Source: Phytopythium helicoides (lineage: Eukaryota > Oomycota > Peronosporomycetes > Pythiales > Pythiaceae). From it: 64,000 nt of DNA. The DNA lies in NCBI GenBank assembly GCA_024867545.1, contig JANFNE010000005.1, positions 372,001-436,000 of the forward strand, read 5' to 3'. This document shows, piece by piece, positions 5,350-64,000 of the stretch. The notes beneath the pieces were generated by a model that made no database searches, was not told where the DNA came from, and was given only the letters and a program-made list of their open reading frames with translations. Both the position numbers and the translations under genes were made by a program. The stretch's first letter is position 1. The number at the start of each line of letters is the position of its first letter.

Positions 5350-5382
5350 TCAGCCAGTAAAATATTGTCTTGATTGTGTAGC

Positions 5383-6050: not shown

Positions 6051-6069
6051 TGTTTGACGGAGCAAGGCG

Positions 6070-6160
6070 TGTGTGTCAAAGAATGTGTGAGTGTGTATGT
6101 GTGTTGTGTGTGTGTTGTGGTGTGTCGTCGTTTGTATTTGTGTGTGTGTGGAGTATTCAC
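6070..6160 (+). repeat. GT-rich 5' flank of the tRNA (unit 1 as example)
   Basis: Degenerate GT dinucleotide tract (runs of TGTGTGTG broken by A or C) ending just before GGAGTATTCACT and the tRNA. It recurs at the same place in every unit. Alternating purine/pyrimidine runs of this kind can adopt Z-DNA; an effect on transcription here is inference. Confidence 0.85.
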
Positions 6161-6170
6161 TGTGGTCGTA

Positions 6171-6182
6171 TAGCTCAGTCGG
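6171..6182 (+). promoter_or_regulatory. Pol III A box inside the tRNA gene (unit 1 as example)
   Basis: TAGCTCAGTCGG, tRNA positions 8-19, matches the TRGYNNARNNG consensus. It is present unchanged at the same offset in all 111 copies. Confidence 0.9.
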
Positions 6183-6214
6183 TAGAGCACAGTGCTAATA
6201 ACGCTGCGGTCCAG

Positions 6215-6225
6215 GGTTCGAGCCC
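6215..6225 (+). promoter_or_regulatory. Pol III B box (TFIIIC site) inside the tRNA gene (unit 1 as example)
   Basis: GGTTCGAGCCC matches the GGTTCGANNCC consensus. It recurs every 525 bp; only copy 40 has an indel at its edge (extra C in the run after the loop). This makes the array a dense series of potential TFIIIC sites. Confidence 0.9.
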
Positions 6226-6249
6226 CTGTATGACCACTTCCTTTGCGTC

Positions 6250-6253
6250 TTTT
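6250..6253 (+). terminator. Pol III T4 terminator after the tRNA (unit 1 as example)
   Basis: First run of four T on the + strand after the tRNA, 13 nt past its last base; another T4 follows at 6263-6266. Both are conserved in types A and B. No CCA is encoded: the discriminator A is followed by CTTCC. Confidence 0.7.
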
Positions 6254-6688
6254 GCCGCCTGCTTTTGCCTGTTTCTGCTCACTCTCCTCTCCTCCTCTTG
6301 CTCGCATTGCTCGCATTGTGCTGGCGAGATAGCCTCCTTTCCGTGTGTCTGCGTACCTCGCGCCTCGCGGGTGGGTCCGTCATGGTCCTCTCTTGTCGGT
6401 TCTCCTCGATTCGACTGGATTGCCGGGCCTCTTTTCGTTTCGCATTTCGCGTTCCGAGTCCTGTTTTTGCACCAATCGATCTTTCATTTTGGTCGCTATT
6501 CTTTCTTGCGTGCAATCGGATGCAGGTGGTCGAAATTGTCAAAATCGGGTGCGTGTATGCGATTGTGTGATTGTGTGTTTGACGGAGCAAGGCGTGTGTG
6601 TCAAAGAATGTGTGAGTGTGTATGTGTGTTGTGTGTGTGTTGTGGTGTGTCGTCGTTTGTATTTGTGTGTGTGTGGAGTATTCACTGT

Positions 6689-6761
6689 GGTCGTATAGCT
6701 CAGTCGGTAGAGCACAGTGCTAATAACGCTGCGGTCCAGGGTTCGAGCCCCTGTATGACCA
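6689..6761 (+). tRNA. tRNA-Ile-AAT: tRNA-Ile(AAT), copy 2
   Basis: Identical to copy 1; GGG spacer downstream. Confidence 0.96.
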
Positions 6762-7213
6762 CTTCCTTTGCGTCTTTTGCCGCCTGCTTTTGCCTGTTTC
6801 TGCTCACTCTCCTCTCCTCCTCTTGCTCGCATTGCTCGCATTGTGCTGGCGAGATAGCCTCCTTTCCGTGTGTCTGCGTACCTCGCGCCTCGCGGGTGGG
6901 TCCGTCATGGTCCTCTCTTGTCGGTTCTCCTCGATTCGACTGGATTGCCGGGCCTCTTTTCGTTTCGCATTTCGCGTTCCGAGTCCTGTTTTTGCACCAA
7001 TCGATCTTTCATTTTGGTCGCTATTCTTTCTTGCGTGCAATCGGATGCAGGTGGTCGAAATTGTCAAAATCGGGTGCGTGTATGCGATTGTGTGATTGTG
7101 TGTTTGACGGAGCAAGGCGTGTGTGTCAAAGAATGTGTGAGTGTGTATGTGTGTTGTGTGTGTGTTGTGGTGTGTCGTCGTTTGTATTTGTGTGTGTGTG
7201 GAGTATTCACTGT

Positions 7214-7286
7214 GGTCGTATAGCTCAGTCGGTAGAGCACAGTGCTAATAACGCTGCGGTCCAGGGTTCGAGCCCCTGTATGACCA
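7214..7286 (+). tRNA. tRNA-Ile-AAT: tRNA-Ile(AAT), copy 3
   Basis: Identical to copy 1; GGG spacer downstream. Confidence 0.96.
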
Positions 7287-46587: not shown

Positions 46588-46660
46588 GGTCGTATAGCTC
46601 AGTCGGTAGAGCACAGTGCTAATAACGCTGCGGTCCAGGGTTCGAGCCCCTGTATGACCA
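46588..46660 (+). tRNA. tRNA-Ile-AAT: tRNA-Ile(AAT), copy 78
   Basis: Identical to copy 1; AGG spacer. Confidence 0.95.
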
Positions 46661-47112: not shown

Positions 47113-47185
47113 GGTCGTATAGCTCAGTCGGTAGAGCACAGTGCTAATAACGCTGCGGTCCAGGGTTCGAGCCCCTGTATGACCA
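47113..47185 (+). tRNA. tRNA-Ile-AAT: tRNA-Ile(AAT), copy 79
   Basis: Identical to copy 1; AGG spacer. Confidence 0.95.
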
Positions 47186-47637
47186 CTTCCTTTGCGTCTT
47201 TTGCCGCCTGCTTTTGCCTGTTTCTGCTCACTCTCCTCTCCTCCTCTTGCTCGCATTGCTCGCATTGTGCTGGCGAGATAGCCTCCTTTCCGTGTGTCTG
47301 CGTACCTCGCGCCTCGCGGGTGGGTCCGTCATAGTCCTCTCTTGTCGGTTCTCCTCGATTCGACTGGATTGCCGGGCCTCTTTTCGTTTCGCATTTCGCG
47401 TTCCGAGTCCTGTTTTTGCACCAATCGATCTTTCATTTTGGTCGCTATTCTTTCTTGCGTGCAATCGGATGCAGGTGGTCGAAATTGTCAAAATCGGGTG
47501 CGTGTATGCGATTGTGTGATTGTGTGTTTGACGGAGCAAGGCGTGTGTGTCAAAGAATGTGTGAGTGTGTATGTGTGTTGTGTGTGTGTTGTGGTGTGTC
47601 GTCGTTTGTATTTGTGTGTGTGTGGAGTATTCACTGT

Positions 47638-47710
47638 GGTCGTATAGCTCAGTCGGTAGAGCACAGTGCTAATAACGCTGCGGTCCAGGGTTCGAGCCCC
47701 TGTATGACCA
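47638..47710 (+). tRNA. tRNA-Ile-AAT: tRNA-Ile(AAT), copy 80
   Basis: Identical to copy 1; AGG spacer. Confidence 0.95.
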
Positions 47711-48162
47711 CTTCCTTTGCGTCTTTTGCCGCCTGCTTTTGCCTGTTTCTGCTCACTCTCCTCTCCTCCTCTTGCTCGCATTGCTCGCATTGTGCTGGCG
47801 AGATAGCCTCCTTTCCGTGTGTCTGCGTACCTCGCGCCTCGCGGGTGGGTCCGTCATAGTCCTCTCTTGTCGGTTCTCCTCGATTCGACTGGATTGCCGG
47901 GCCTCTTTTCGTTTCGCATTTCGCGTTCCGAGTCCTGTTTTTGCACCAATCGATCTTTCATTTTGGTCGCTATTCTTTCTTGCGTGCAATCGGATGCAGG
48001 TGGTCGAAATTGTCAAAATCGGGTGCGTGTATGCGATTGTGTGATTGTGTGTTTGACGGAGCAAGGCGTGTGTGTCAAAGAATGTGTGAGTGTGTATGTG
48101 TGTTGTGTGTGTGTTGTGGTGTGTCGTCGTTTGTATTTGTGTGTGTGTGGAGTATTCACTGT

Positions 48163-48235
48163 GGTCGTATAGCTCAGTCGGTAGAGCACAGTGCTAATAA
48201 CGCTGCGGTCCAGGGTTCGAGCCCCTGTATGACCA
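48163..48235 (+). tRNA. tRNA-Ile-AAT: tRNA-Ile(AAT), copy 81
   Basis: Identical to copy 1; AGG spacer. Confidence 0.95.
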
Positions 48236-48687
48236 CTTCCTTTGCGTCTTTTGCCGCCTGCTTTTGCCTGTTTCTGCTCACTCTCCTCTCCTCCTCTTGC
48301 TCGCATTGCTCGCATTGTGCTGGCGAGATAGCCTCCTTTCCGTGTGTCTGCGTACCTCGCGCCTCGCGGGTGGGTCCGTCATAGTCCTCTCTTGTCGGTT
48401 CTCCTCGATTCGACTGGATTGCCGGGCCTCTTTTCGTTTCGCATTTCGCGTTCCGAGTCCTGTTTTTGCACCAATCGATCTTTCATTTTGGTCGCTATTC
48501 TTTCTTGCGTGCAATCGGATGCAGGTGGTCGAAATTGTCAAAATCGGGTGCGTGTATGCGATTGTGTGATTGTGTGTTTGACGGAGCAAGGCGTGTGTGT
48601 CAAAGAATGTGTGAGTGTGTATGTGTGTTGTGTGTGTGTTGTGGTGTGTCGTCGTTTGTATTTGTGTGTGTGTGGAGTATTCACTGT

Positions 48688-48760
48688 GGTCGTATAGCTC
48701 AGTCGGTAGAGCACAGTGCTAATAACGCTGCGGTCCAGGGTTCGAGCCCCTGTATGACCA
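48688..48760 (+). tRNA. tRNA-Ile-AAT: tRNA-Ile(AAT), copy 82
   Basis: Identical to copy 1; AGG spacer. Confidence 0.95.
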
Positions 48761-49212
48761 CTTCCTTTGCGTCTTTTGCCGCCTGCTTTTGCCTGTTTCT
48801 GCTCACTCTCCTCTCCTCCTCTTGCTCGCATTGCTCGCATTGTGCTGGCGAGATAGCCTCCTTTCCGTGTGTCTGCGTACCTCGCGCCTCGCGGGTGGGT
48901 CCGTCATAGTCCTCTCTTGTCGGTTCTCCTCGATTCGACTGGATTGCCGGGCCTCTTTTCGTTTCGCATTTCGCGTTCCGAGTCCTGTTTTTGCACCAAT
49001 CGATCTTTCATTTTGGTCGCTATTCTTTCTTGCGTGCAATCGGATGCAGGTGGTCGAAATTGTCAAAATCGGGTGCGTGTATGCGATTGTGTGATTGTGT
49101 GTTTGACGGAGCAAGGCGTGTGTGTCAAAGAATGTGTGAGTGTGTATGTGTGTTGTGTGTGTGTTGTGGTGTGTCGTCGTTTGTATTTGTGTGTGTGTGG
49201 AGTATTCACTGT

Positions 49213-49285
49213 GGTCGTATAGCTCAGTCGGTAGAGCACAGTGCTAATAACGCTGCGGTCCAGGGTTCGAGCCCCTGTATGACCA
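49213..49285 (+). tRNA. tRNA-Ile-AAT: tRNA-Ile(AAT), copy 83
   Basis: Identical to copy 1; AGG spacer. Confidence 0.95.
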
Positions 49286-49737
49286 CTTCCTTTGCGTCTT
49301 TTGCCGCCTGCTTTTGCCTGTTTCTGCTCACTCTCCTCTCCTCCTCTTGCTCGCATTGCTCGCATTGTGCTGGCGAGATAGCCTCCTTTCCGTGTGTCTG
49401 CGTACCTCGCGCCTCGCGGGTGGGTCCGTCATAGTCCTCTCTTGTCGGTTCTCCTCGATTCGACTGGATTGCCGGGCCTCTTTTCGTTTCGCATTTCGCG
49501 TTCCGAGTCCTGTTTTTGCACCAATCGATCTTTCATTTTGGTCGCTATTCTTTCTTGCGTGCAATCGGATGCAGGTGGTCGAAATTGTCAAAATCGGGTG
49601 CGTGTATGCGATTGTGTGATTGTGTGTTTGACGGAGCAAGGCGTGTGTGTCAAAGAATGTGTGAGTGTGTATGTGTGTTGTGTGTGTGTTGTGGTGTGTC
49701 GTCGTTTGTATTTGTGTGTGTGTGGAGTATTCACTGT

Positions 49738-49810
49738 GGTCGTATAGCTCAGTCGGTAGAGCACAGTGCTAATAACGCTGCGGTCCAGGGTTCGAGCCCC
49801 TGTATGACCA
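49738..49810 (+). tRNA. tRNA-Ile-AAT: tRNA-Ile(AAT), copy 84
   Basis: Identical to copy 1; AGG spacer. Confidence 0.95.
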
Positions 49811-50262
49811 CTTCCTTTGCGTCTTTTGCCGCCTGCTTTTGCCTGTTTCTGCTCACTCTCCTCTCCTCCTCTTGCTCGCATTGCTCGCATTGTGCTGGCG
49901 AGATAGCCTCCTTTCCGTGTGTCTGCGTACCTCGCGCCTCGCGGGTGGGTCCGTCATAGTCCTCTCTTGTCGGTTCTCCTCGATTCGACTGGATTGCCGG
50001 GCCTCTTTTCGTTTCGCATTTCGCGTTCCGAGTCCTGTTTTTGCACCAATCGATCTTTCATTTTGGTCGCTATTCTTTCTTGCGTGCAATCGGATGCAGG
50101 TGGTCGAAATTGTCAAAATCGGGTGCGTGTATGCGATTGTGTGATTGTGTGTTTGACGGAGCAAGGCGTGTGTGTCAAAGAATGTGTGAGTGTGTATGTG
50201 TGTTGTGTGTGTGTTGTGGTGTGTCGTCGTTTGTATTTGTGTGTGTGTGGAGTATTCACTGT

Positions 50263-50335
50263 GGTCGTATAGCTCAGTCGGTAGAGCACAGTGCTAATAA
50301 CGCTGCGGTCCAGGGTTCGAGCCCCTGTATGACCA
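50263..50335 (+). tRNA. tRNA-Ile-AAT: tRNA-Ile(AAT), copy 85
   Basis: Identical to copy 1; AGG spacer. Confidence 0.95.
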
Positions 50336-50787
50336 CTTCCTTTGCGTCTTTTGCCGCCTGCTTTTGCCTGTTTCTGCTCACTCTCCTCTCCTCCTCTTGC
50401 TCGCATTGCTCGCATTGTGCTGGCGAGATAGCCTCCTTTCCGTGTGTCTGCGTACCTCGCGCCTCGCGGGTGGGTCCGTCATAGTCCTCTCTTGTCGGTT
50501 CTCCTCGATTCGACTGGATTGCCGGGCCTCTTTTCGTTTCGCATTTCGCGTTCCGAGTCCTGTTTTTGCACCAATCGATCTTTCATTTTGGTCGCTATTC
50601 TTTCTTGCGTGCAATCGGATGCAGGTGGTCGAAATTGTCAAAATCGGGTGCGTGTATGCGATTGTGTGATTGTGTGTTTGACGGAGCAAGGCGTGTGTGT
50701 CAAAGAATGTGTGAGTGTGTATGTGTGTTGTGTGTGTGTTGTGGTGTGTCGTCGTTTGTATTTGTGTGTGTGTGGAGTATTCACTGT

Positions 50788-50860
50788 GGTCGTATAGCTC
50801 AGTCGGTAGAGCACAGTGCTAATAACGCTGCGGTCCAGGGTTCGAGCCCCTGTATGACCA
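50788..50860 (+). tRNA. tRNA-Ile-AAT: tRNA-Ile(AAT), copy 86
   Basis: Identical to copy 1; AGG spacer. Confidence 0.95.
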
Positions 50861-51312
50861 CTTCCTTTGCGTCTTTTGCCGCCTGCTTTTGCCTGTTTCT
50901 GCTCACTCTCCTCTCCTCCTCTTGCTCGCATTGCTCGCATTGTGCTGGCGAGATAGCCTCCTTTCCGTGTGTCTGCGTACCTCGCGCCTCGCGGGTGGGT
51001 CCGTCATAGTCCTCTCTTGTCGGTTCTCCTCGATTCGACTGGATTGCCGGGCCTCTTTTCGTTTCGCATTTCGCGTTCCGAGTCCTGTTTTTGCACCAAT
51101 CGATCTTTCATTTTGGTCGCTATTCTTTCTTGCGTGCAATCGGATGCAGGTGGTCGAAATTGTCAAAATCGGGTGCGTGTATGCGATTGTGTGATTGTGT
51201 GTTTGACGGAGCAAGGCGTGTGTGTCAAAGAATGTGTGAGTGTGTATGTGTGTTGTGTGTGTGTTGTGGTGTGTCGTCGTTTGTATTTGTGTGTGTGTGG
51301 AGTATTCACTGT

Positions 51313-51385
51313 GGTCGTATAGCTCAGTCGGTAGAGCACAGTGCTAATAACGCTGCGGTCCAGGGTTCGAGCCCCTGTATGACCA
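51313..51385 (+). tRNA. tRNA-Ile-AAT: tRNA-Ile(AAT), copy 87
   Basis: Identical to copy 1; AGG spacer. Confidence 0.95.
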
Positions 51386-51837
51386 CTTCCTTTGCGTCTT
51401 TTGCCGCCTGCTTTTGCCTGTTTCTGCTCACTCTCCTCTCCTCCTCTTGCTCGCATTGCTCGCATTGTGCTGGCGAGATAGCCTCCTTTCCGTGTGTCTG
51501 CGTACCTCGCGCCTCGCGGGTGGGTCCGTCATAGTCCTCTCTTGTCGGTTCTCCTCGATTCGACTGGATTGCCGGGCCTCTTTTCGTTTCGCATTTCGCG
51601 TTCCGAGTCCTGTTTTTGCACCAATCGATCTTTCATTTTGGTCGCTATTCTTTCTTGCGTGCAATCGGATGCAGGTGGTCGAAATTGTCAAAATCGGGTG
51701 CGTGTATGCGATTGTGTGATTGTGTGTTTGACGGAGCAAGGCGTGTGTGTCAAAGAATGTGTGAGTGTGTATGTGTGTTGTGTGTGTGTTGTGGTGTGTC
51801 GTCGTTTGTATTTGTGTGTGTGTGGAGTATTCACTGT

Positions 51838-51910
51838 GGTCGTATAGCTCAGTCGGTAGAGCACAGTGCTAATAACGCTGCGGTCCAGGGTTCGAGCCCC
51901 TGTATGACCA
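51838..51910 (+). tRNA. tRNA-Ile-AAT: tRNA-Ile(AAT), copy 88
   Basis: Identical to copy 1; AGG spacer. Confidence 0.95.
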
Positions 51911-52362
51911 CTTCCTTTGCGTCTTTTGCCGCCTGCTTTTGCCTGTTTCTGCTCACTCTCCTCTCCTCCTCTTGCTCGCATTGCTCGCATTGTGCTGGCG
52001 AGATAGCCTCCTTTCCGTGTGTCTGCGTACCTCGCGCCTCGCGGGTGGGTCCGTCATAGTCCTCTCTTGTCGGTTCTCCTCGATTCGACTGGATTGCCGG
52101 GCCTCTTTTCGTTTCGCATTTCGCGTTCCGAGTCCTGTTTTTGCACCAATCGATCTTTCATTTTGGTCGCTATTCTTTCTTGCGTGCAATCGGATGCAGG
52201 TGGTCGAAATTGTCAAAATCGGGTGCGTGTATGCGATTGTGTGATTGTGTGTTTGACGGAGCAAGGCGTGTGTGTCAAAGAATGTGTGAGTGTGTATGTG
52301 TGTTGTGTGTGTGTTGTGGTGTGTCGTCGTTTGTATTTGTGTGTGTGTGGAGTATTCACTGT

Positions 52363-52435
52363 GGTCGTATAGCTCAGTCGGTAGAGCACAGTGCTAATAA
52401 CGCTGCGGTCCAGGGTTCGAGCCCCTGTATGACCA
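52363..52435 (+). tRNA. tRNA-Ile-AAT: tRNA-Ile(AAT), copy 89
   Basis: Identical to copy 1; AGG spacer. Confidence 0.95.
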
Positions 52436-52887
52436 CTTCCTTTGCGTCTTTTGCCGCCTGCTTTTGCCTGTTTCTGCTCACTCTCCTCTCCTCCTCTTGC
52501 TCGCATTGCTCGCATTGTGCTGGCGAGATAGCCTCCTTTCCGTGTGTCTGCGTACCTCGCGCCTCGCGGGTGGGTCCGTCATAGTCCTCTCTTGTCGGTT
52601 CTCCTCGATTCGACTGGATTGCCGGGCCTCTTTTCGTTTCGCATTTCGCGTTCCGAGTCCTGTTTTTGCACCAATCGATCTTTCATTTTGGTCGCTATTC
52701 TTTCTTGCGTGCAATCGGATGCAGGTGGTCGAAATTGTCAAAATCGGGTGCGTGTATGCGATTGTGTGATTGTGTGTTTGACGGAGCAAGGCGTGTGTGT
52801 CAAAGAATGTGTGAGTGTGTATGTGTGTTGTGTGTGTGTTGTGGTGTGTCGTCGTTTGTATTTGTGTGTGTGTGGAGTATTCACTGT

Positions 52888-52960
52888 GGTCGTATAGCTC
52901 AGTCGGTAGAGCACAGTGCTAATAACGCTGCGGTCCAGGGTTCGAGCCCCTGTATGACCA
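52888..52960 (+). tRNA. tRNA-Ile-AAT: tRNA-Ile(AAT), copy 90
   Basis: Identical to copy 1; AGG spacer. Confidence 0.95.
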
Positions 52961-53412
52961 CTTCCTTTGCGTCTTTTGCCGCCTGCTTTTGCCTGTTTCT
53001 GCTCACTCTCCTCTCCTCCTCTTGCTCGCATTGCTCGCATTGTGCTGGCGAGATAGCCTCCTTTCCGTGTGTCTGCGTACCTCGCGCCTCGCGGGTGGGT
53101 CCGTCATAGTCCTCTCTTGTCGGTTCTCCTCGATTCGACTGGATTGCCGGGCCTCTTTTCGTTTCGCATTTCGCGTTCCGAGTCCTGTTTTTGCACCAAT
53201 CGATCTTTCATTTTGGTCGCTATTCTTTCTTGCGTGCAATCGGATGCAGGTGGTCGAAATTGTCAAAATCGGGTGCGTGTATGCGATTGTGTGATTGTGT
53301 GTTTGACGGAGCAAGGCGTGTGTGTCAAAGAATGTGTGAGTGTGTATGTGTGTTGTGTGTGTGTTGTGGTGTGTCGTCGTTTGTATTTGTGTGTGTGTGG
53401 AGTATTCACTGT

Positions 53413-53485
53413 GGTCGTATAGCTCAGTCGGTAGAGCACAGTGCTAATAACGCTGCGGTCCAGGGTTCGAGCCCCTGTATGACCA
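53413..53485 (+). tRNA. tRNA-Ile-AAT: tRNA-Ile(AAT), copy 91
   Basis: Identical to copy 1; AGG spacer. Confidence 0.95.
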
Positions 53486-53937
53486 CTTCCTTTGCGTCTT
53501 TTGCCGCCTGCTTTTGCCTGTTTCTGCTCACTCTCCTCTCCTCCTCTTGCTCGCATTGCTCGCATTGTGCTGGCGAGATAGCCTCCTTTCCGTGTGTCTG
53601 CGTACCTCGCGCCTCGCGGGTGGGTCCGTCATAGTCCTCTCTTGTCGGTTCTCCTCGATTCGACTGGATTGCCGGGCCTCTTTTCGTTTCGCATTTCGCG
53701 TTCCGAGTCCTGTTTTTGCACCAATCGATCTTTCATTTTGGTCGCTATTCTTTCTTGCGTGCAATCGGATGCAGGTGGTCGAAATTGTCAAAATCGGGTG
53801 CGTGTATGCGATTGTGTGATTGTGTGTTTGACGGAGCAAGGCGTGTGTGTCAAAGAATGTGTGAGTGTGTATGTGTGTTGTGTGTGTGTTGTGGTGTGTC
53901 GTCGTTTGTATTTGTGTGTGTGTGGAGTATTCACTGT

Positions 53938-54010
53938 GGTCGTATAGCTCAGTCGGTAGAGCACAGTGCTAATAACGCTGCGGTCCAGGGTTCGAGCCCC
54001 TGTATGACCA
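53938..54010 (+). tRNA. tRNA-Ile-AAT: tRNA-Ile(AAT), copy 92
   Basis: Identical to copy 1; AGG spacer. Confidence 0.95.
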
Positions 54011-54462
54011 CTTCCTTTGCGTCTTTTGCCGCCTGCTTTTGCCTGTTTCTGCTCACTCTCCTCTCCTCCTCTTGCTCGCATTGCTCGCATTGTGCTGGCG
54101 AGATAGCCTCCTTTCCGTGTGTCTGCGTACCTCGCGCCTCGCGGGTGGGTCCGTCATAGTCCTCTCTTGTCGGTTCTCCTCGATTCGACTGGATTGCCGG
54201 GCCTCTTTTCGTTTCGCATTTCGCGTTCCGAGTCCTGTTTTTGCACCAATCGATCTTTCATTTTGGTCGCTATTCTTTCTTGCGTGCAATCGGATGCAGG
54301 TGGTCGAAATTGTCAAAATCGGGTGCGTGTATGCGATTGTGTGATTGTGTGTTTGACGGAGCAAGGCGTGTGTGTCAAAGAATGTGTGAGTGTGTATGTG
54401 TGTTGTGTGTGTGTTGTGGTGTGTCGTCGTTTGTATTTGTGTGTGTGTGGAGTATTCACTGT

Positions 54463-54535
54463 GGTCGTATAGCTCAGTCGGTAGAGCACAGTGCTAATAA
54501 CGCTGCGGTCCAGGGTTCGAGCCCCTGTATGACCA
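54463..54535 (+). tRNA. tRNA-Ile-AAT: tRNA-Ile(AAT), copy 93
   Basis: Identical to copy 1; AGG spacer. Confidence 0.95.
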
Positions 54536-54987
54536 CTTCCTTTGCGTCTTTTGCCGCCTGCTTTTGCCTGTTTCTGCTCACTCTCCTCTCCTCCTCTTGC
54601 TCGCATTGCTCGCATTGTGCTGGCGAGATAGCCTCCTTTCCGTGTGTCTGCGTACCTCGCGCCTCGCGGGTGGGTCCGTCATAGTCCTCTCTTGTCGGTT
54701 CTCCTCGATTCGACTGGATTGCCGGGCCTCTTTTCGTTTCGCATTTCGCGTTCCGAGTCCTGTTTTTGCACCAATCGATCTTTCATTTTGGTCGCTATTC
54801 TTTCTTGCGTGCAATCGGATGCAGGTGGTCGAAATTGTCAAAATCGGGTGCGTGTATGCGATTGTGTGATTGTGTGTTTGACGGAGCAAGGCGTGTGTGT
54901 CAAAGAATGTGTGAGTGTGTATGTGTGTTGTGTGTGTGTTGTGGTGTGTCGTCGTTTGTATTTGTGTGTGTGTGGAGTATTCACTGT

Positions 54988-55060
54988 GGTCGTATAGCTC
55001 AGTCGGTAGAGCACAGTGCTAATAACGCTGCGGTCCAGGGTTCGAGCCCCTGTATGACCA
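54988..55060 (+). tRNA. tRNA-Ile-AAT: tRNA-Ile(AAT), copy 94
   Basis: Identical to copy 1; AGG spacer. Confidence 0.95.
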
Positions 55061-55512
55061 CTTCCTTTGCGTCTTTTGCCGCCTGCTTTTGCCTGTTTCT
55101 GCTCACTCTCCTCTCCTCCTCTTGCTCGCATTGCTCGCATTGTGCTGGCGAGATAGCCTCCTTTCCGTGTGTCTGCGTACCTCGCGCCTCGCGGGTGGGT
55201 CCGTCATAGTCCTCTCTTGTCGGTTCTCCTCGATTCGACTGGATTGCCGGGCCTCTTTTCGTTTCGCATTTCGCGTTCCGAGTCCTGTTTTTGCACCAAT
55301 CGATCTTTCATTTTGGTCGCTATTCTTTCTTGCGTGCAATCGGATGCAGGTGGTCGAAATTGTCAAAATCGGGTGCGTGTATGCGATTGTGTGATTGTGT
55401 GTTTGACGGAGCAAGGCGTGTGTGTCAAAGAATGTGTGAGTGTGTATGTGTGTTGTGTGTGTGTTGTGGTGTGTCGTCGTTTGTATTTGTGTGTGTGTGG
55501 AGTATTCACTGT

Positions 55513-55585
55513 GGTCGTATAGCTCAGTCGGTAGAGCACAGTGCTAATAACGCTGCGGTCCAGGGTTCGAGCCCCTGTATGACCA
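55513..55585 (+). tRNA. tRNA-Ile-AAT: tRNA-Ile(AAT), copy 95
   Basis: Identical to copy 1; AGG spacer. Confidence 0.95.
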
Positions 55586-56037
55586 CTTCCTTTGCGTCTT
55601 TTGCCGCCTGCTTTTGCCTGTTTCTGCTCACTCTCCTCTCCTCCTCTTGCTCGCATTGCTCGCATTGTGCTGGCGAGATAGCCTCCTTTCCGTGTGTCTG
55701 CGTACCTCGCGCCTCGCGGGTGGGTCCGTCATAGTCCTCTCTTGTCGGTTCTCCTCGATTCGACTGGATTGCCGGGCCTCTTTTCGTTTCGCATTTCGCG
55801 TTCCGAGTCCTGTTTTTGCACCAATCGATCTTTCATTTTGGTCGCTATTCTTTCTTGCGTGCAATCGGATGCAGGTGGTCGAAATTGTCAAAATCGGGTG
55901 CGTGTATGCGATTGTGTGATTGTGTGTTTGACGGAGCAAGGCGTGTGTGTCAAAGAATGTGTGAGTGTGTATGTGTGTTGTGTGTGTGTTGTGGTGTGTC
56001 GTCGTTTGTATTTGTGTGTGTGTGGAGTATTCACTGT

Positions 56038-56110
56038 GGTCGTATAGCTCAGTCGGTAGAGCACAGTGCTAATAACGCTGCGGTCCAGGGTTCGAGCCCC
56101 TGTATGACCA
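56038..56110 (+). tRNA. tRNA-Ile-AAT: tRNA-Ile(AAT), copy 96
   Basis: Identical to copy 1; AGG spacer. Confidence 0.95.
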
Positions 56111-56562
56111 CTTCCTTTGCGTCTTTTGCCGCCTGCTTTTGCCTGTTTCTGCTCACTCTCCTCTCCTCCTCTTGCTCGCATTGCTCGCATTGTGCTGGCG
56201 AGATAGCCTCCTTTCCGTGTGTCTGCGTACCTCGCGCCTCGCGGGTGGGTCCGTCATAGTCCTCTCTTGTCGGTTCTCCTCGATTCGACTGGATTGCCGG
56301 GCCTCTTTTCGTTTCGCATTTCGCGTTCCGAGTCCTGTTTTTGCACCAATCGATCTTTCATTTTGGTCGCTATTCTTTCTTGCGTGCAATCGGATGCAGG
56401 TGGTCGAAATTGTCAAAATCGGGTGCGTGTATGCGATTGTGTGATTGTGTGTTTGACGGAGCAAGGCGTGTGTGTCAAAGAATGTGTGAGTGTGTATGTG
56501 TGTTGTGTGTGTGTTGTGGTGTGTCGTCGTTTGTATTTGTGTGTGTGTGGAGTATTCACTGT

Positions 56563-56635
56563 GGTCGTATAGCTCAGTCGGTAGAGCACAGTGCTAATAA
56601 CGCTGCGGTCCAGGGTTCGAGCCCCTGTATGACCA
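56563..56635 (+). tRNA. tRNA-Ile-AAT: tRNA-Ile(AAT), copy 97
   Basis: Identical to copy 1; AGG spacer. Confidence 0.95.
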
Positions 56636-57087
56636 CTTCCTTTGCGTCTTTTGCCGCCTGCTTTTGCCTGTTTCTGCTCACTCTCCTCTCCTCCTCTTGC
56701 TCGCATTGCTCGCATTGTGCTGGCGAGATAGCCTCCTTTCCGTGTGTCTGCGTACCTCGCGCCTCGCGGGTGGGTCCGTCATAGTCCTCTCTTGTCGGTT
56801 CTCCTCGATTCGACTGGATTGCCGGGCCTCTTTTCGTTTCGCATTTCGCGTTCCGAGTCCTGTTTTTGCACCAATCGATCTTTCATTTTGGTCGCTATTC
56901 TTTCTTGCGTGCAATCGGATGCAGGTGGTCGAAATTGTCAAAATCGGGTGCGTGTATGCGATTGTGTGATTGTGTGTTTGACGGAGCAAGGCGTGTGTGT
57001 CAAAGAATGTGTGAGTGTGTATGTGTGTTGTGTGTGTGTTGTGGTGTGTCGTCGTTTGTATTTGTGTGTGTGTGGAGTATTCACTGT

Positions 57088-57160
57088 GGTCGTATAGCTC
57101 AGTCGGTAGAGCACAGTGCTAATAACGCTGCGGTCCAGGGTTCGAGCCCCTGTATGACCA
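57088..57160 (+). tRNA. tRNA-Ile-AAT: tRNA-Ile(AAT), copy 98
   Basis: Identical to copy 1; AGG spacer. Confidence 0.95.
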
Positions 57161-57612
57161 CTTCCTTTGCGTCTTTTGCCGCCTGCTTTTGCCTGTTTCT
57201 GCTCACTCTCCTCTCCTCCTCTTGCTCGCATTGCTCGCATTGTGCTGGCGAGATAGCCTCCTTTCCGTGTGTCTGCGTACCTCGCGCCTCGCGGGTGGGT
57301 CCGTCATAGTCCTCTCTTGTCGGTTCTCCTCGATTCGACTGGATTGCCGGGCCTCTTTTCGTTTCGCATTTCGCGTTCCGAGTCCTGTTTTTGCACCAAT
57401 CGATCTTTCATTTTGGTCGCTATTCTTTCTTGCGTGCAATCGGATGCAGGTGGTCGAAATTGTCAAAATCGGGTGCGTGTATGCGATTGTGTGATTGTGT
57501 GTTTGACGGAGCAAGGCGTGTGTGTCAAAGAATGTGTGAGTGTGTATGTGTGTTGTGTGTGTGTTGTGGTGTGTCGTCGTTTGTATTTGTGTGTGTGTGG
57601 AGTATTCACTGT

Positions 57613-57685
57613 GGTCGTATAGCTCAGTCGGTAGAGCACAGTGCTAATAACGCTGCGGTCCAGGGTTCGAGCCCCTGTATGACCA
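57613..57685 (+). tRNA. tRNA-Ile-AAT: tRNA-Ile(AAT), copy 99
   Basis: Identical to copy 1; AGG spacer. Confidence 0.95.
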
Positions 57686-58137
57686 CTTCCTTTGCGTCTT
57701 TTGCCGCCTGCTTTTGCCTGTTTCTGCTCACTCTCCTCTCCTCCTCTTGCTCGCATTGCTCGCATTGTGCTGGCGAGATAGCCTCCTTTCCGTGTGTCTG
57801 CGTACCTCGCGCCTCGCGGGTGGGTCCGTCATAGTCCTCTCTTGTCGGTTCTCCTCGATTCGACTGGATTGCCGGGCCTCTTTTCGTTTCGCATTTCGCG
57901 TTCCGAGTCCTGTTTTTGCACCAATCGATCTTTCATTTTGGTCGCTATTCTTTCTTGCGTGCAATCGGATGCAGGTGGTCGAAATTGTCAAAATCGGGTG
58001 CGTGTATGCGATTGTGTGATTGTGTGTTTGACGGAGCAAGGCGTGTGTGTCAAAGAATGTGTGAGTGTGTATGTGTGTTGTGTGTGTGTTGTGGTGTGTC
58101 GTCGTTTGTATTTGTGTGTGTGTGGAGTATTCACTGT

Positions 58138-58210
58138 GGTCGTATAGCTCAGTCGGTAGAGCACAGTGCTAATAACGCTGCGGTCCAGGGTTCGAGCCCC
58201 TGTATGACCA
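58138..58210 (+). tRNA. tRNA-Ile-AAT: tRNA-Ile(AAT), copy 100
   Basis: Identical to copy 1; AGG spacer. Confidence 0.95.
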
Positions 58211-58662
58211 CTTCCTTTGCGTCTTTTGCCGCCTGCTTTTGCCTGTTTCTGCTCACTCTCCTCTCCTCCTCTTGCTCGCATTGCTCGCATTGTGCTGGCG
58301 AGATAGCCTCCTTTCCGTGTGTCTGCGTACCTCGCGCCTCGCGGGTGGGTCCGTCATAGTCCTCTCTTGTCGGTTCTCCTCGATTCGACTGGATTGCCGG
58401 GCCTCTTTTCGTTTCGCATTTCGCGTTCCGAGTCCTGTTTTTGCACCAATCGATCTTTCATTTTGGTCGCTATTCTTTCTTGCGTGCAATCGGATGCAGG
58501 TGGTCGAAATTGTCAAAATCGGGTGCGTGTATGCGATTGTGTGATTGTGTGTTTGACGGAGCAAGGCGTGTGTGTCAAAGAATGTGTGAGTGTGTATGTG
58601 TGTTGTGTGTGTGTTGTGGTGTGTCGTCGTTTGTATTTGTGTGTGTGTGGAGTATTCACTGT

Positions 58663-58735
58663 GGTCGTATAGCTCAGTCGGTAGAGCACAGTGCTAATAA
58701 CGCTGCGGTCCAGGGTTCGAGCCCCTGTATGACCA
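58663..58735 (+). tRNA. tRNA-Ile-AAT: tRNA-Ile(AAT), copy 101
   Basis: Identical to copy 1; AGG spacer. Confidence 0.95.
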
Positions 58736-59187
58736 CTTCCTTTGCGTCTTTTGCCGCCTGCTTTTGCCTGTTTCTGCTCACTCTCCTCTCCTCCTCTTGC
58801 TCGCATTGCTCGCATTGTGCTGGCGAGATAGCCTCCTTTCCGTGTGTCTGCGTACCTCGCGCCTCGCGGGTGGGTCCGTCATAGTCCTCTCTTGTCGGTT
58901 CTCCTCGATTCGACTGGATTGCCGGGCCTCTTTTCGTTTCGCATTTCGCGTTCCGAGTCCTGTTTTTGCACCAATCGATCTTTCATTTTGGTCGCTATTC
59001 TTTCTTGCGTGCAATCGGATGCAGGTGGTCGAAATTGTCAAAATCGGGTGCGTGTATGCGATTGTGTGATTGTGTGTTTGACGGAGCAAGGCGTGTGTGT
59101 CAAAGAATGTGTGAGTGTGTATGTGTGTTGTGTGTGTGTTGTGGTGTGTCGTCGTTTGTATTTGTGTGTGTGTGGAGTATTCACTGT

Positions 59188-59260
59188 GGTCGTATAGCTC
59201 AGTCGGTAGAGCACAGTGCTAATAACGCTGCGGTCCAGGGTTCGAGCCCCTGTATGACCA
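59188..59260 (+). tRNA. tRNA-Ile-AAT: tRNA-Ile(AAT), copy 102
   Basis: Identical to copy 1; AGG spacer. Confidence 0.95.
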
Positions 59261-59712
59261 CTTCCTTTGCGTCTTTTGCCGCCTGCTTTTGCCTGTTTCT
59301 GCTCACTCTCCTCTCCTCCTCTTGCTCGCATTGCTCGCATTGTGCTGGCGAGATAGCCTCCTTTCCGTGTGTCTGCGTACCTCGCGCCTCGCGGGTGGGT
59401 CCGTCATAGTCCTCTCTTGTCGGTTCTCCTCGATTCGACTGGATTGCCGGGCCTCTTTTCGTTTCGCATTTCGCGTTCCGAGTCCTGTTTTTGCACCAAT
59501 CGATCTTTCATTTTGGTCGCTATTCTTTCTTGCGTGCAATCGGATGCAGGTGGTCGAAATTGTCAAAATCGGGTGCGTGTATGCGATTGTGTGATTGTGT
59601 GTTTGACGGAGCAAGGCGTGTGTGTCAAAGAATGTGTGAGTGTGTATGTGTGTTGTGTGTGTGTTGTGGTGTGTCGTCGTTTGTATTTGTGTGTGTGTGG
59701 AGTATTCACTGT

Positions 59713-59785
59713 GGTCGTATAGCTCAGTCGGTAGAGCACAGTGCTAATAACGCTGCGGTCCAGGGTTCGAGCCCCTGTATGACCA
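59713..59785 (+). tRNA. tRNA-Ile-AAT: tRNA-Ile(AAT), copy 103
   Basis: Identical to copy 1; AGG spacer. Confidence 0.95.
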
Positions 59786-60237
59786 CTTCCTTTGCGTCTT
59801 TTGCCGCCTGCTTTTGCCTGTTTCTGCTCACTCTCCTCTCCTCCTCTTGCTCGCATTGCTCGCATTGTGCTGGCGAGATAGCCTCCTTTCCGTGTGTCTG
59901 CGTACCTCGCGCCTCGCGGGTGGGTCCGTCATAGTCCTCTCTTGTCGGTTCTCCTCGATTCGACTGGATTGCCGGGCCTCTTTTCGTTTCGCATTTCGCG
60001 TTCCGAGTCCTGTTTTTGCACCAATCGATCTTTCATTTTGGTCGCTATTCTTTCTTGCGTGCAATCGGATGCAGGTGGTCGAAATTGTCAAAATCGGGTG
60101 CGTGTATGCGATTGTGTGATTGTGTGTTTGACGGAGCAAGGCGTGTGTGTCAAAGAATGTGTGAGTGTGTATGTGTGTTGTGTGTGTGTTGTGGTGTGTC
60201 GTCGTTTGTATTTGTGTGTGTGTGGAGTATTCACTGT

Positions 60238-60310
60238 GGTCGTATAGCTCAGTCGGTAGAGCACAGTGCTAATAACGCTGCGGTCCAGGGTTCGAGCCCC
60301 TGTATGACCA
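60238..60310 (+). tRNA. tRNA-Ile-AAT: tRNA-Ile(AAT), copy 104
   Basis: Identical to copy 1; AGG spacer. Confidence 0.95.
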
Positions 60311-60762
60311 CTTCCTTTGCGTCTTTTGCCGCCTGCTTTTGCCTGTTTCTGCTCACTCTCCTCTCCTCCTCTTGCTCGCATTGCTCGCATTGTGCTGGCG
60401 AGATAGCCTCCTTTCCGTGTGTCTGCGTACCTCGCGCCTCGCGGGTGGGTCCGTCATAGTCCTCTCTTGTCGGTTCTCCTCGATTCGACTGGATTGCCGG
60501 GCCTCTTTTCGTTTCGCATTTCGCGTTCCGAGTCCTGTTTTTGCACCAATCGATCTTTCATTTTGGTCGCTATTCTTTCTTGCGTGCAATCGGATGCAGG
60601 TGGTCGAAATTGTCAAAATCGGGTGCGTGTATGCGATTGTGTGATTGTGTGTTTGACGGAGCAAGGCGTGTGTGTCAAAGAATGTGTGAGTGTGTATGTG
60701 TGTTGTGTGTGTGTTGTGGTGTGTCGTCGTTTGTATTTGTGTGTGTGTGGAGTATTCACTGT

Positions 60763-60835
60763 GGTCGTATAGCTCAGTCGGTAGAGCACAGTGCTAATAA
60801 CGCTGCGGTCCAGGGTTCGAGCCCCTGTATGACCA
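60763..60835 (+). tRNA. tRNA-Ile-AAT: tRNA-Ile(AAT), copy 105
   Basis: Identical to copy 1; last AGG spacer downstream. Confidence 0.95.
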
Positions 60836-61287
60836 CTTCCTTTGCGTCTTTTGCCGCCTGCTTTTGCCTGTTTCTGCTCACTCTCCTCTCCTCCTCTTGC
60901 TCGCATTGCTCGCATTGTGCTGGCGAGATAGCCTCCTTTCCGTGTGTCTGCGTACCTCGCGCCTCGCGGGTGGGTCCGTCATAGTCCTCTCTTGTCGGTT
61001 CTCCTCGATTCGACTGGATTGCCGGGCCTCTTTTCGTTTCGCATTTCGCGTTCCGAGTCCTGTTTTTGCACCAATCGATCTTTCATTTTGGTCGCTATTC
61101 TTTCTTGCGTGCAATCGGATGCAGGTGGTCGAAATTGTCAAAATCGGGTGCGTGTATGCGATTGTGTGATTGTGTGTTTGACGGAGCAAGGCGTGTGTGT
61201 CAAAGAATGTGTGAGTGTGTATGTGTGTTGTGTGTGTGTTGTGGTGTGTCGTCGTTTGTATTTGTGTGTGTGTGGAGTATTCACTGT

Positions 61288-61360
61288 GGTCGTATAGCTC
61301 AGTCGGTAGAGCACAGTGCTAATAACGCTGCGGTCCAGGGTTCGAGCCCCTGTATGACCA
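61288..61360 (+). tRNA. tRNA-Ile-AAT: tRNA-Ile(AAT), copy 106
   Basis: Identical to copy 1. Type A flank on the left, type B spacer on the right from 61371; that spacer lacks one C in its GATAGCCTCC segment. Confidence 0.96.
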
Positions 61361-61812
61361 CTTCCTTTGCTTCTTTTGCCGCCTGCTTTTGCCTGTTTCT
61401 GCTCGCTCGCTCTCCTCCTCTCGCTCGCGTTGCTCGCGTTGTGCTGGCGGGATAGCTCCTTTCCGCGTGCCTGTGTACCTCGCGGGTGGGTTTGCCATGG
61501 TCCTCTCTTGTCGGTTCTCCTCGATTCGACTCGATTGCCGGAGCTCGTTTCGTTTCGCGTTTCTCGTTCCGAGTCCTGTTTTTGCACCAATCGATCTTTC
61601 ATTTTGGTCGCTATTCTTTCTTGCGTGCAATCGGATGAGGGTGGTCGAAATTGTCAAAATTGTGTGCGTGTATGCGTTTGTGTGATTGTGTGATTGTGTT
61701 TTTGACGGAGCAAGGTGTGTGTGTAAAAGAATGTGTGAATGTGTATGTGGTTGTGTGTGTGCGTTGTGGTGTGTCGTCGTTTGTATTTGTGTGTGTGTGG
61801 AGTATTCACTGT

Positions 61813-61885
61813 GGTCGTATAGCTCAGTCGGTAGAGCACAGTGCTAATAACGCTGCGGTCCAGGGTTCGAGCCCCTGTATGACCA
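61813..61885 (+). tRNA. tRNA-Ile-AAT: tRNA-Ile(AAT), copy 107
   Basis: Identical to copy 1 although both flanks are type B. Its downstream spacer has a 2-bp loss (CGCGTTTCGCG) and one extra T (GGGTTTTGCC). Confidence 0.96.
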
Positions 61886-62337
61886 CTTCCTTTGCTTCTT
61901 TTGCCGCCTGCTTTTGCCTGTTTCTGCTCGCTCGCTCTCCTCCTCTCGCTCGCGTTTCGCGTTGTGCTGGCGGGATAGCCTCCTTTCCGCGTGCCTGTGT
62001 ACCTCGCGGGTGGGTTTTGCCATGGTCCTCTCTTGTCGGTTCTCCTCGATTCGACTCGATTGCCGGAGCTCGTTTCGTTTCGCGTTTCTCGTTCCGAGTC
62101 CTGTTTTTGCACCAATCGATCTTTCATTTTGGTCGCTATTCTTTCTTGCGTGCAATCGGATGAGGGTGGTCGAAATTGTCAAAATTGTGTGCGTGTATGC
62201 GTTTGTGTGATTGTGTGATTGTGTTTTTGACGGAGCAAGGTGTGTGTGTAAAAGAATGTGTGAATGTGTATGTGGTTGTGTGTGTGCGTTGTGGTGTGTC
62301 GTCGTTTGTATTTGTGTGTGTGTGGAGTATTCACTGT

Positions 62338-62410
62338 GGTCGTATAGCTCAGTCGGTAGAGCACAGTGCTAATAACGCTGCGGTCCAGGGTTCGAGCCCC
62401 TGTATGACCA
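62338..62410 (+). tRNA. tRNA-Ile-AAT: tRNA-Ile(AAT), copy 108
   Basis: Identical to copy 1; its downstream type B spacer lacks 2 bp in the GCTC repeat. Confidence 0.96.
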
Positions 62411-62861
62411 CTTCCTTTGCTTCTTTTGCCGCCTGCTTTTGCCTGTTTCTGCTCGCGCTCTCCTCCTCTCGCTCGCGTTGCTCGCGTTGTGCTGGCGGGA
62501 TAGCCTCCTTTCCGCGTGCCTGTGTACCTCGCGGGTGGGTTTGCCATGGTCCTCTCTTGTCGGTTCTCCTCGATTCGACTCGATTGCCGGAGCTCGTTTC
62601 GTTTCGCGTTTCTCGTTCCGAGTCCTGTTTTTGCACCAATCGATCTTTCATTTTGGTCGCTATTCTTTCTTGCGTGCAATCGGATGAGGGTGGTCGAAAT
62701 TGTCAAAATTGTGTGCGTGTATGCGTTTGTGTGATTGTGTGATTGTGTTTTTGACGGAGCAAGGTGTGTGTGTAAAAGAATGTGTGAATGTGTATGTGGT
62801 TGTGTGTGTGCGTTGTGGTGTGTCGTCGTTTGTATTTGTGTGTGTGTGGAGTATTCACTGT

Positions 62862-62934
62862 GGTCGTATAGCTCAGTCGGTAGAGCACAGTGCTAATAAC
62901 GCTGCGGTCCAGGGTTCGAGCCCCTGTATGACCA
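62862..62934 (+). tRNA. tRNA-Ile-AAT: tRNA-Ile(AAT), copy 109
   Basis: Identical to copy 1; its downstream type B spacer has lost one C (GCCGCTGC). Confidence 0.96.
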
Positions 62935-63386
62935 CTTCCTTTGCTTCTTTTGCCGCTGCTTTTGCCTGTTTCTGCTCGCTCGCTCTCCTCCTCTCGCTCG
63001 CGTTGCTCGCGTTGTGCTGGCGGGATAGCCTCCTTTCCGCGTGCCTGTGTACCTCGCGGGTGGGTTTGCCATGGTCCTCTCTTGTCGGTTCTCCTCGATT
63101 CGACTCGATTGCCGGAGCTCGTTTCGTTTCGCGTTTCTCGTTCCGAGTCCTGTTTTTGCACCAATCGATCTTTCATTTTGGTCGCTATTCTTTCTTGCGT
63201 GCAATCGGATGAGGGTGGTCGAAATTGTCAAAATTGTGTGCGTGTATGCGTTTGTGTGATTGTGTGATTGTGTTTTTGACGGAGCAAGGTGTGTGTGTAA
63301 AAGAATGTGTGAATGTGTATGTGGTTGTGTGTGTGCGTTGTGGTGTGTCGTCGTTTGTATTTGTGTGTGTGTGGAGTATTCACTGT

Positions 63387-63460
63387 GGTCGTATAGCTCA
63401 GTCGGTAGAGCACAGTGCTAATAACGCTGCGGTCCAGGGTTCGAGCCCCTGTATGAACCA
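63387..63460 (+). tRNA. tRNA-Ile-AAT: tRNA-Ile(AAT), copy 110, damaged (74 nt)
   Basis: One extra A in the 3' strand of the acceptor stem (TATGAACC in place of TATGACC) puts a bulge in the stem. The rest is consensus, including both Pol III boxes. It may be a slightly impaired gene or a homopolymer error. Confidence 0.8.
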
Positions 63461-63913
63461 CTTCCTTTGCTTCTTTTGCCGCCTGCTTTTGCCTGTTTCT
63501 GCTCGCTCGCTCTCCTCCTCTCGCTCGCGTTGCTCGCGTTGTGCTGGCGGGATAGCCTCCTTTCCGCGTGCCTGTGTACCTCGCGGGTGGGTTTGCCATG
63601 GTCCTCTCTTGTCGGTTCTCCTCGATTCGACTCGATTGCCGGAGCTCGTTTCGTTTCGCGTTTCTCGTTCCGAGTCCTGTTTTTGCACCAATCGATCTTT
63701 CATTTTGGTCGCTATTCTTTCTTGCGTGCAATCGGATGAGGGTGGTCGAAATTGTCAAAATTGTGTGCGTGTATGCGTTTGTGTGATTGTGTGATTGTGT
63801 TTTTGACGGAGCAAGGTGTGTGTGTAAAAGAATGTGTGAATGTGTATGTGGTTGTGTGTGTGCGTTGTGGTGTGTCGTCGTTTGTATTTGTGTGTGTGTG
63901 GAGTATTCACTGT

Positions 63914-63986
63914 GGTCGTATAGCTCAGTCGGTAGAGCACAGTGCTAATAACGCTGCGGTCCAGGGTTCGAGCCCCTGTATGACCA
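63914..63986 (+). tRNA. tRNA-Ile-AAT: tRNA-Ile(AAT), copy 111
   Basis: Identical to copy 1. It ends 14 nt before the window edge; the downstream bases CTTCCTTTGCTTCT are type B, so the array goes on. Confidence 0.96.
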
Positions 63987-64000
63987 CTTCCTTTGCTTCT

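What the first reader, a model, noticed from the sequence alone, without database searches (positions are those of the whole stretch)
6051..64000. Very large tandem array of a single tRNA-Ile(AAT) gene: 111 copies in 58 kb
Every 525 bp there is one complete 73-nt tRNA gene on the same strand, with Pol III A and B boxes and a T4 terminator, 109 of them identical. Tandem tRNA arrays are known (for example in Entamoeba, Xenopus and zebrafish), but an array of one isoacceptor with over a hundred units, open to the right, is unusual, and I know of no description of it in a stramenopile. One isoacceptor alone so amplified would skew tRNA gene dosage unless most copies are silent.
Basis: partly seen in the sequence, partly recalled or inferred. 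Interest (0 to 1): 0.92.

Follow-up and report, generated by a model that had tools for sequence, protein, structure and literature searches.

The report
Giant block of isoleucine tRNA genes
In the genome of what is likely an oomycete (water mould), 136 copies of one isoleucine tRNA gene stand head to tail in a single 71-kb block, one of at least 13 such tRNA blocks found there; they are likely real, working tRNA genes rather than the SINE-like mobile-element copies that a recent paper proposed for similar blocks.

Summary
The window has 111 tRNA-Ile(AAT) genes on one strand, about every 525 bp, 109 of them identical. The array ends 13 kb past the window, at 136 genes in 71 kb.

It is not new in kind. 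The same genome has at least 12 more tandem tRNA arrays (16 anticodons in all). Such arrays are described in Phytophthora infestans (PMC9584435, as tRNA genes) and Peronospora effusa (PMC11540230, as 'SINE-like' elements). Here the tests favour genes: all exact Ile copies lie at one locus, a T-run stop follows the tRNA, an intron-bearing tRNA-Tyr is arrayed, and in 7 of 18 families the tRNA varies less than its flanks (Lys: 0 of 73 columns against 122 of 329). The other 11 families do not show this, mostly for lack of any variation.

One feature I found in no listing searched: the ~120 bp before the gene is G/T-rich (0.72-0.91) and C-poor (1-11%) in 17 of 18 arrayed tRNA families, and before 5S genes. 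The 18th, His, has tRNA-Ala directly upstream. I infer a Pol III-associated leader; its function is untested.

Main caveat: 34 kb of the array is exactly periodic, so the copy number rests on the assembly.

The parts
6053..64000 (+). tRNA-Ile(AAT) tandem array (window part; continues to C46:449123, i.e. window-equivalent 77123)
6053..6577 (+). first 525-bp repeat unit
6053..6163 (+). G/T-rich, C-poor leader of the first unit (repeated in the units)
6164..6236 (+). tRNA-Ile(AAT) gene, first copy (73 nt)
   Evidence: 65.1 bits
6250..6253 (+). TTTT, predicted Pol III terminator, 14 nt after the tRNA
6254..6577 (+). spacer, C/T-rich near the gene
26114..27077 (+). units 38-39 with one-off indels, one holding a variant tRNA; possibly weak consensus or an assembly join
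27078..61370 (+). 34,293-bp exactly 525-periodic stretch (65 identical units); copy number here is assembly-dependent
61288..64000 (+). start of a block of 11 diverged units (46 to 50 differing columns each); the first five have one-off indels; tRNA at 63387 is a variant

Best explanation
This is a 71-kb head-to-tail array of 136 tRNA-Ile(AAT) genes that likely serves as this organism's main source of that tRNA and likely grows, shrinks and stays uniform through unequal recombination between its copies. Shown: each unit has a G/T-rich leader and a complete tRNA with internal A and B boxes, and all but the edge copy are followed by a T4 run; every exact copy in the 49-Mb assembly is in this one locus; at least 12 other arrays hold other isoacceptors, with the same leader type. 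Inferred: RNA polymerase III starts at the tRNA and stops at T4, so each unit gives one short tRNA precursor and the rest of the unit is untranscribed spacer. The leader probably keeps the Pol III start site open or helps TFIIIB bind; that step is the weakest. Purifying selection on tRNA function plus exchange between neighbours probably keeps the tRNA constant while the 3' spacer drifts.
For: Count, strand, period, flanks. Single locus: (135 forward, 0 reverse in the genome) against 135 in the array. Other arrays by ARAGORN on fetched pieces: Lys-CTT C50, Gln-TTG/CTG C72 and C11, Trp/Thr/Ser trio C4, Lys-TTT and Leu-CAA C14, Thr-TGT C57, Ala-His C25, Tyr with intron C28, Cys C74, Asn C76, Arg C10. 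tRNA varies less than its flanks, known edge copies dropped: Lys 0/73 columns against 122/329, Gln-CTG (C72) 0/73 against 114/309, Tyr 0/106 against 41/278, His 0/73 against 53/284, Trp, Gln-TTG (C11), Ile 5/74 against 56/277 (p = 0.0054); 7 of 18 families at p < 0.05. Ile after I dropped 10 of 134 units with indels: 0/73 against 54/451. Gln tRNAs identical (73/73) between C72 and C11 while flanks diverged. Local exchange: 89 adjacent identical pairs against a shuffled mean of 53, maximum 64 of 2,000. Leader.
Against: No expression data. 11 of 18 families show no significant difference between tRNA and flanks: most have almost no variation at all, but Thr-CGT and Ser-GCT of the C4 trio vary in the tRNA itself (10/75 and 9/81 columns, two copies each) as much as in the flanks, and Asn has one variable tRNA column and none in its flanks. 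My first version of the test (9 of 14 families) was inflated by edge copies, which sit next to unrelated DNA. Polishing of long reads can fake uniformity, and the exactly periodic 34 kb cannot be checked without reads. A diverged Ile-AAT gene elsewhere is not excluded, since needs an exact match. T4 within 15 nt of the tRNA is found in 10 of 18 families only; Arg and Ala (His follows it) have none within 150 nt.
Confidence: 0.82

Rival explanations
1. The units are SINE-like mobile elements that carry a tRNA-like head, as proposed for the same kind of array in Peronospora effusa; the cell's real tRNA genes lie elsewhere.
For: PMC11540230 section 9 (read) classes such clusters as SINE-like because they expand and shrink fast and have ORFs in the spacer. 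In the Ile array one frame is open through the first units (window 6044-9010). tRNAs of the C4 trio vary as much as their flanks.
Against: No exact Ile copy outside one locus. T4 14 or 15 nt after the Ile tRNA would end a Pol III transcript before the rest of the unit. 16 anticodons occur in arrays, one with an intron-bearing tRNA-Tyr, and 4 of 5 stretches fetched around B-box matches outside the recognised arrays hold no ARAGORN tRNA. In 7 of 18 families the tRNA is the more constant part. The open frame runs through the tRNA itself and the commonest unit has a stop in it.
Confidence: 0.08
2. Much of the array length is an assembly or polishing artefact; the true array is far shorter.
For: 34,293 bp are exactly periodic; neighbouring units 38, 39 and 105-109 carry one-off indels.
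Against: The 38 left-hand units carry an irregular mosaic of three variant sites. The contig joins non-array DNA on both sides. P. infestans array counts agreed with Illumina depth (PMC9584435 section 9).
Confidence: 0.15
3. The G/T-rich leader is a by-product of transcription-linked mutation (C to T and A to G on the exposed strand), not a promoter part.
For: C falls to 3-4% and A to 12-14% on the coding strand at about -100 to -25, as a mean over 17 family representatives. Between the two Gln arrays the leader keeps its composition while its sequence changes.
Against: Downstream DNA is on average C/T-rich, not G/T-rich, so one simple bias does not explain both sides. Within the Tyr array the leader does not vary (0/120) while the 3' side does (41/158). 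Substitution counts are too small to test direction.
Confidence: 0.35
4. Most copies are silent and the array serves chromosome structure (insulator, boundary, or telomere-like role).
For: Entamoeba authors think many arrayed copies are inactive and note a telomere proposal (PMC2652664 section 29, read).
Against: The array is internal (378-449 kb of a 1.66-Mb contig), so it is not an end structure in this assembly. Silent copies would let tRNA and spacer drift alike; 7 of 18 families speak against that, the C4 Thr and Ser tRNAs do not.
Confidence: 0.12

Closest known systems
Tandem tRNA gene arrays of Phytophthora infestans (PMC9584435; section 9 and search passages read)
   Same: Near-identical monomeric units of similar length (513-nt Cys unit), families mostly on one chromosome, variants grouped near edges; a Gln-CTG/TTG repeat and a Thr-CGT/Trp-CCA/Ser-GCT trio occur in both genomes, and the trio is the more variable kind in both.
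   Different: Different genome (49 Mb here; 219 Mb in 15 pseudochromosomes there). The G/T-rich leader was not in the passages I read. Order and strand inside the trio were not compared.
'SINE-like' tRNA clusters of Peronospora effusa (PMC11540230; section 9 and search passages read)
   Same: 10 to 970 tRNA units per cluster; in the 570-copy Arg cluster the tRNA is 100% identical and the rest less so; each repeat confined to one place.
   Different: Inversions inside a cluster are reported there; here all 136 Ile genes are on one strand. Those authors class them as SINE-like; my tests do not support that here.
Entamoeba tRNA arrays (PMC2652664; abstract and section 29 read)
   Same: Almost all tRNA genes there are in tandem arrays, some with 5S RNA; function unclear.
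   Different: Entamoeba units hold up to 5 tRNA genes, in E. histolytica with complex short repeats between them; 9 of the 13 arrays here have one tRNA gene per unit in the pieces read, behind a G/T-rich leader.
Xenopus and zebrafish tRNA clusters (recalled, not tested)
   Same: Repetition of tRNA genes in a eukaryote.
   Different: Recalled as multi-gene units; no sequence compared here.

Membership tests
Oomycete tandem tRNA gene array (P. infestans type) | Head-to-tail units of one tRNA gene, tens to hundreds of copies, near-identical | tested here: met
   136 genes, 133 identical, about 525-bp units
Oomycete tandem tRNA gene array (P. infestans type) | Family confined to one chromosomal locus | tested here: met
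   135 exact genome matches, 135 in the array; diverged copies elsewhere not excluded
Oomycete tandem tRNA gene array (P. infestans type) | Other isoacceptors also arrayed, some as dimers or trimers | tested here: met
   12 further arrays; Gln dimers, Trp/Thr/Ser trio, Ala-His dimer
Oomycete tandem tRNA gene array (P. infestans type) | Host is an oomycete | tested here: met
   Flanking PI4-kinase: best named hits include Hyaloperonospora, Peronosclerospora, Phytophthora kernoviae; one gene only, species not known
Oomycete tandem tRNA gene array (P. infestans type) | Copy number confirmed by read depth | not testable with these tools
   no reads held
SINE / SINE-like element | Dispersed copies in the genome | tested here: not met
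   no exact tRNA copy outside the array; a whole-unit search gave only weak, partial hits at other loci and did not list this array, as that search skips very common words
SINE / SINE-like element | Transcript runs from the tRNA head into the element body | tested here: not met
   T4 14 or 15 nt after the Ile tRNA in all 135 copies tested, not in the edge copy; a predicted stop, no RNA data; in 8 of 18 arrayed families T4 is farther away or absent
SINE / SINE-like element | Target-site duplications around copies | tested here: inconclusive
   units abut directly, so no insertion into other DNA was available to judge
SINE / SINE-like element | Mobilised by a partner LINE | not tested
   not examined
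Telomere-replacing tRNA array | Lies at chromosome ends | tested here: not met
   378-449 kb inside a 1.66-Mb contig; the C50 and C28 arrays begin near contig starts, which may be assembly breaks

The most novel reading that the evidence does not exclude
Arrayed Pol III genes of this oomycete (tRNA arrays and 5S repeats) sit behind a shared upstream element defined by composition rather than by a sequence motif: about 120 bp of G/T-rich, C-poor DNA on the coding strand. It would be a lineage-specific Pol III leader, kept in arrays of unrelated tRNAs, that opens the start site and may also drive the unequal exchange that keeps the arrays large and uniform.
Probability: 0.4. Interest if true: 0.7.

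Novelty: new member of a known kind. Interest (0 to 1): 0.5.

Why it matters
Two recent papers read the same kind of array in opposite ways: tRNA genes, or SINE-like elements that were added to a transposon library. For this genome the tests favour genes, so masking such arrays as transposons would hide tRNA genes for at least 16 anticodons. The shared G/T-rich leader, if it holds in other oomycetes, gives a testable upstream Pol III signal; my searches listed no oomycete paper on one. The arrays are also a clean natural case for asking how a cell keeps over a hundred copies of one tRNA gene constant.

Tried and rejected
Telomere-like role: rejected for this array, which is internal. Spacer-encoded protein: one frame is open through the first units (window 6044-9010) but it reads through the tRNA and the commonest unit has a stop in it; A is only 12% on this strand, which makes stops scarce, so I treat it as a by-product. 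Sequence homology between leaders of different arrays: the first hits cover TG-rich DNA or the tRNA itself, so I claim shared composition, not shared descent. Direction of mutation in the leader: too few substitutions. First tRNA-against-flank test: partly wrong, because edge copies sit beside unrelated DNA; redone without known edge copies and with more interior copies, where Thr-TGT, Cys, Leu-CAA and Ala lost significance; His and Trp, tested only there, are significant. B-box pattern with a T-run was too strict and told little. Rfam tRNA search of the genome scored only 63 of 3,472 candidates, so I give no total tRNA count; the B-box count 2,463 against 756 for the reversed pattern is only a rough sign of an excess, and for one form (GGTTCRACTCC) the control exceeded the count, 55 against 34. 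Searches for print on a G/T-rich leader listed no oomycete paper describing one; I saw only listings there. Searches gave nothing used; led to or repeated PMC11540230.
Full report
What is there. The window is C46:372001-436000 of a 49.06-Mb genome in 100 contigs. ARAGORN finds 111 tRNA-Ile(AAT) genes in the window, all on +. Rfam gives 65.1 bits for a complete tRNA in each of the four copies in window 1-8200, the only stretch given to that call. I fetched 10 kb to the left and 90 kb to the right. The array begins at C46:378053 (window 6053) and the last tRNA ends at 449123, so it holds 136 genes in 71 kb. Of these, 133 have the same 73 nt; three differ. To the left lie a PI3/PI4-kinase and a protein with an AT-hook match. 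No tRNA was called in C46:362001-378000 or in 449125-526000.

How uniform it is. Units from tRNA to tRNA: 135, of 20 kinds, the commonest 83 times. The left 38 units are a mosaic of three variant sites; 65 units in a row are identical; 11 units form a diverged block with 46 to 50 differing columns each; then the main kind returns, with a few variants, to the right edge. Identical neighbours are commoner than in shuffles (89 against a mean of 53, maximum 64 of 2,000; in the first 38 units 15 against 8.7, P about 0.01). This fits local unequal exchange, which is inferred. Units 38, 39 and 105-109 each have one-off indels, and two of the three variant tRNAs sit in units 39 and 109; these may be sequence errors. 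The 34,293-bp exactly periodic stretch is longer than ordinary long reads (recalled), so the copy number needs read data.

Not alone. Pattern, family and DNA searches of the genome led to 12 more arrays, each confirmed by ARAGORN on a fetched piece: C50 Lys-CTT (28 copies seen, begins near the contig start), C72 and C11 Gln-TTG/CTG, C4 Trp-CCA/Thr-CGT/Ser-GCT, C14 Lys-TTT and C14 Leu-CAA, C57 Thr-TGT, C25 Ala-AGC with His-GTG directly after it, C28 Tyr-GTA with an intron, C74 Cys-GCA, C76 Asn-GTT, C10 Arg-TCT (searches; pieces). I did not list all arrays; only the first 100 places of each pattern are shown. Of five stretches fetched around B-box matches outside the recognised arrays, four (C1 near 589 kb, C1 near 1,182 kb, C2, C6) held no tRNA by ARAGORN and one (C22) held two inverted tRNA-Leu-TAG.

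Genes or mobile elements. PMC9584435 (section 9 and search passages read) treats such arrays in P. infestans as tRNA genes and notes near-identical units with variants near edges. PMC11540230 (section 9 and search passages read) calls them SINE-like in P. effusa. Tests here: (a) the genome has 135 exact Ile copies and the array has 135. (b) T4 follows at 14 or 15 nt in all 135 Ile copies tested and is missing at the edge copy; over all families T4 lies within 15 nt in 10 of 18. (c) With known edge copies dropped, tRNA columns vary less than flanks at p < 0.05 in 7 of 18 families: Lys-CTT, Gln-CTG (C72), Tyr, His, Trp, Gln-TTG (C11), Ile. Eleven show no such difference. In most of these little or nothing varies, but the C4 Thr-CGT and Ser-GCT tRNAs vary as much as their flanks (two copies each), and Asn has one variable tRNA column and none in the flanks. 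An earlier run gave 9 of 14, partly because edge copies border unrelated DNA; this correction lowers my confidence in the gene reading slightly (0.85 to 0.82; SINE rival 0.07 to 0.08). For Ile the result is p = 0.0054 with 135 copies, p = 0.0026 with 134 units and longer flanks, and p = 0.00028 after dropping 10 units with indels. Columns of one alignment are not independent and several families have 2 or 3 copies, so p-values are rough. (d) Gln tRNAs are identical between two loci with diverged flanks. (e) An intron-bearing tRNA-Tyr is arrayed. I conclude that the arrays are tRNA genes in this genome. Expression is not shown.

The leader. On the coding strand the 120 bp (111 for Ile) before the tRNA has a mean G+T of 0.72 to 0.91 and C of 0.01 to 0.11 in 17 of 18 arrayed families, known edge copies dropped; the exception, His (0.68, C 0.16), has tRNA-Ala as its upstream DNA. 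In 3,840 background values from non-array DNA the 99% point of G+T is 0.625, 2 reach 0.72, mean C is 0.28 and its 1% point 0.167. One edge copy (Leu-CAA, C14:34675) lacks the leader (0.35). The 5S repeats have G+T 0.78 and C 0.10 upstream. The C22 tRNA-Leu pair, the only non-arrayed tRNAs examined, has 0.57; two genes are too few for a firm contrast. Constancy of the leader is mixed: it varies less than the 3' side in Tyr (0/120 against 41/158), Ile (10/114 against 46/163) and Lys (39/139 against 83/190), but more in Gln-CTG of C72 (77/140 against 37/169). [quoted passage not shown] pombe. I saw no paper describing this leader in the listings. Its role as a Pol III leader is inferred; mutation bias is the main rival.

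Host. The flanking PI4-kinase has named hits in Hyaloperonospora arabidopsidis, Peronosclerospora sorghi and Phytophthora kernoviae (85% over half the query) and a best hit of 94% over 59% to an unnamed JGI protein. It is an oomycete of the Peronosporales/Pythiales group by inference; the species is not known.

Verdict. It is a new member of a known kind, with one feature (the leader) that may be new.

Noticed in passing
L040-L043; G000:C56:285760 onward: 5S rRNA genes are also tandem, with a 525-bp unit on C56, the same length as the Ile unit, and 533 bp on C98; G+T is 0.78 upstream. B-box-like places about 11.6 kb apart alternate with them on C56 (possibly rDNA, not checked).
   Followed up: partly
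window 6044-9010: A 988-aa open frame runs through more than five units and through the tRNA genes; the commonest unit has a stop in this frame. Likely a by-product of an A-poor strand.
   Followed up: partly
G000:C25:254231-254378: tRNA-Ala and tRNA-His abut with no spacer in the units read, which suggests a two-tRNA precursor.
   Followed up: no
G000:C89, C91, C92: High-scoring tRNAs recur on both strands of these contigs, like a mitochondrial genome with inverted repeats, possibly assembled as concatemers.
   Followed up: no
L039 (C14:34675): The first Leu-CAA copy of its array lacks the G/T-rich leader (G+T 0.35) that the next two copies have (0.79): a natural test of the leader.
   Followed up: partly
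window 61288-64000: A block of 11 diverged units sits between runs of the main unit type, so it may be an older sub-array later flanked by new expansions.
   Followed up: partly
L024 (C4:765001-769000): In the Trp/Thr/Ser trio the Thr and Ser tRNAs differ between neighbouring units, unlike tRNAs of most single-gene arrays.
   Followed up: no
G000:C1:1182578-1196075: A B-box-like sequence recurs four times about 4.5 kb apart without an ARAGORN tRNA in the 6 kb fetched (L027).
   Followed up: no
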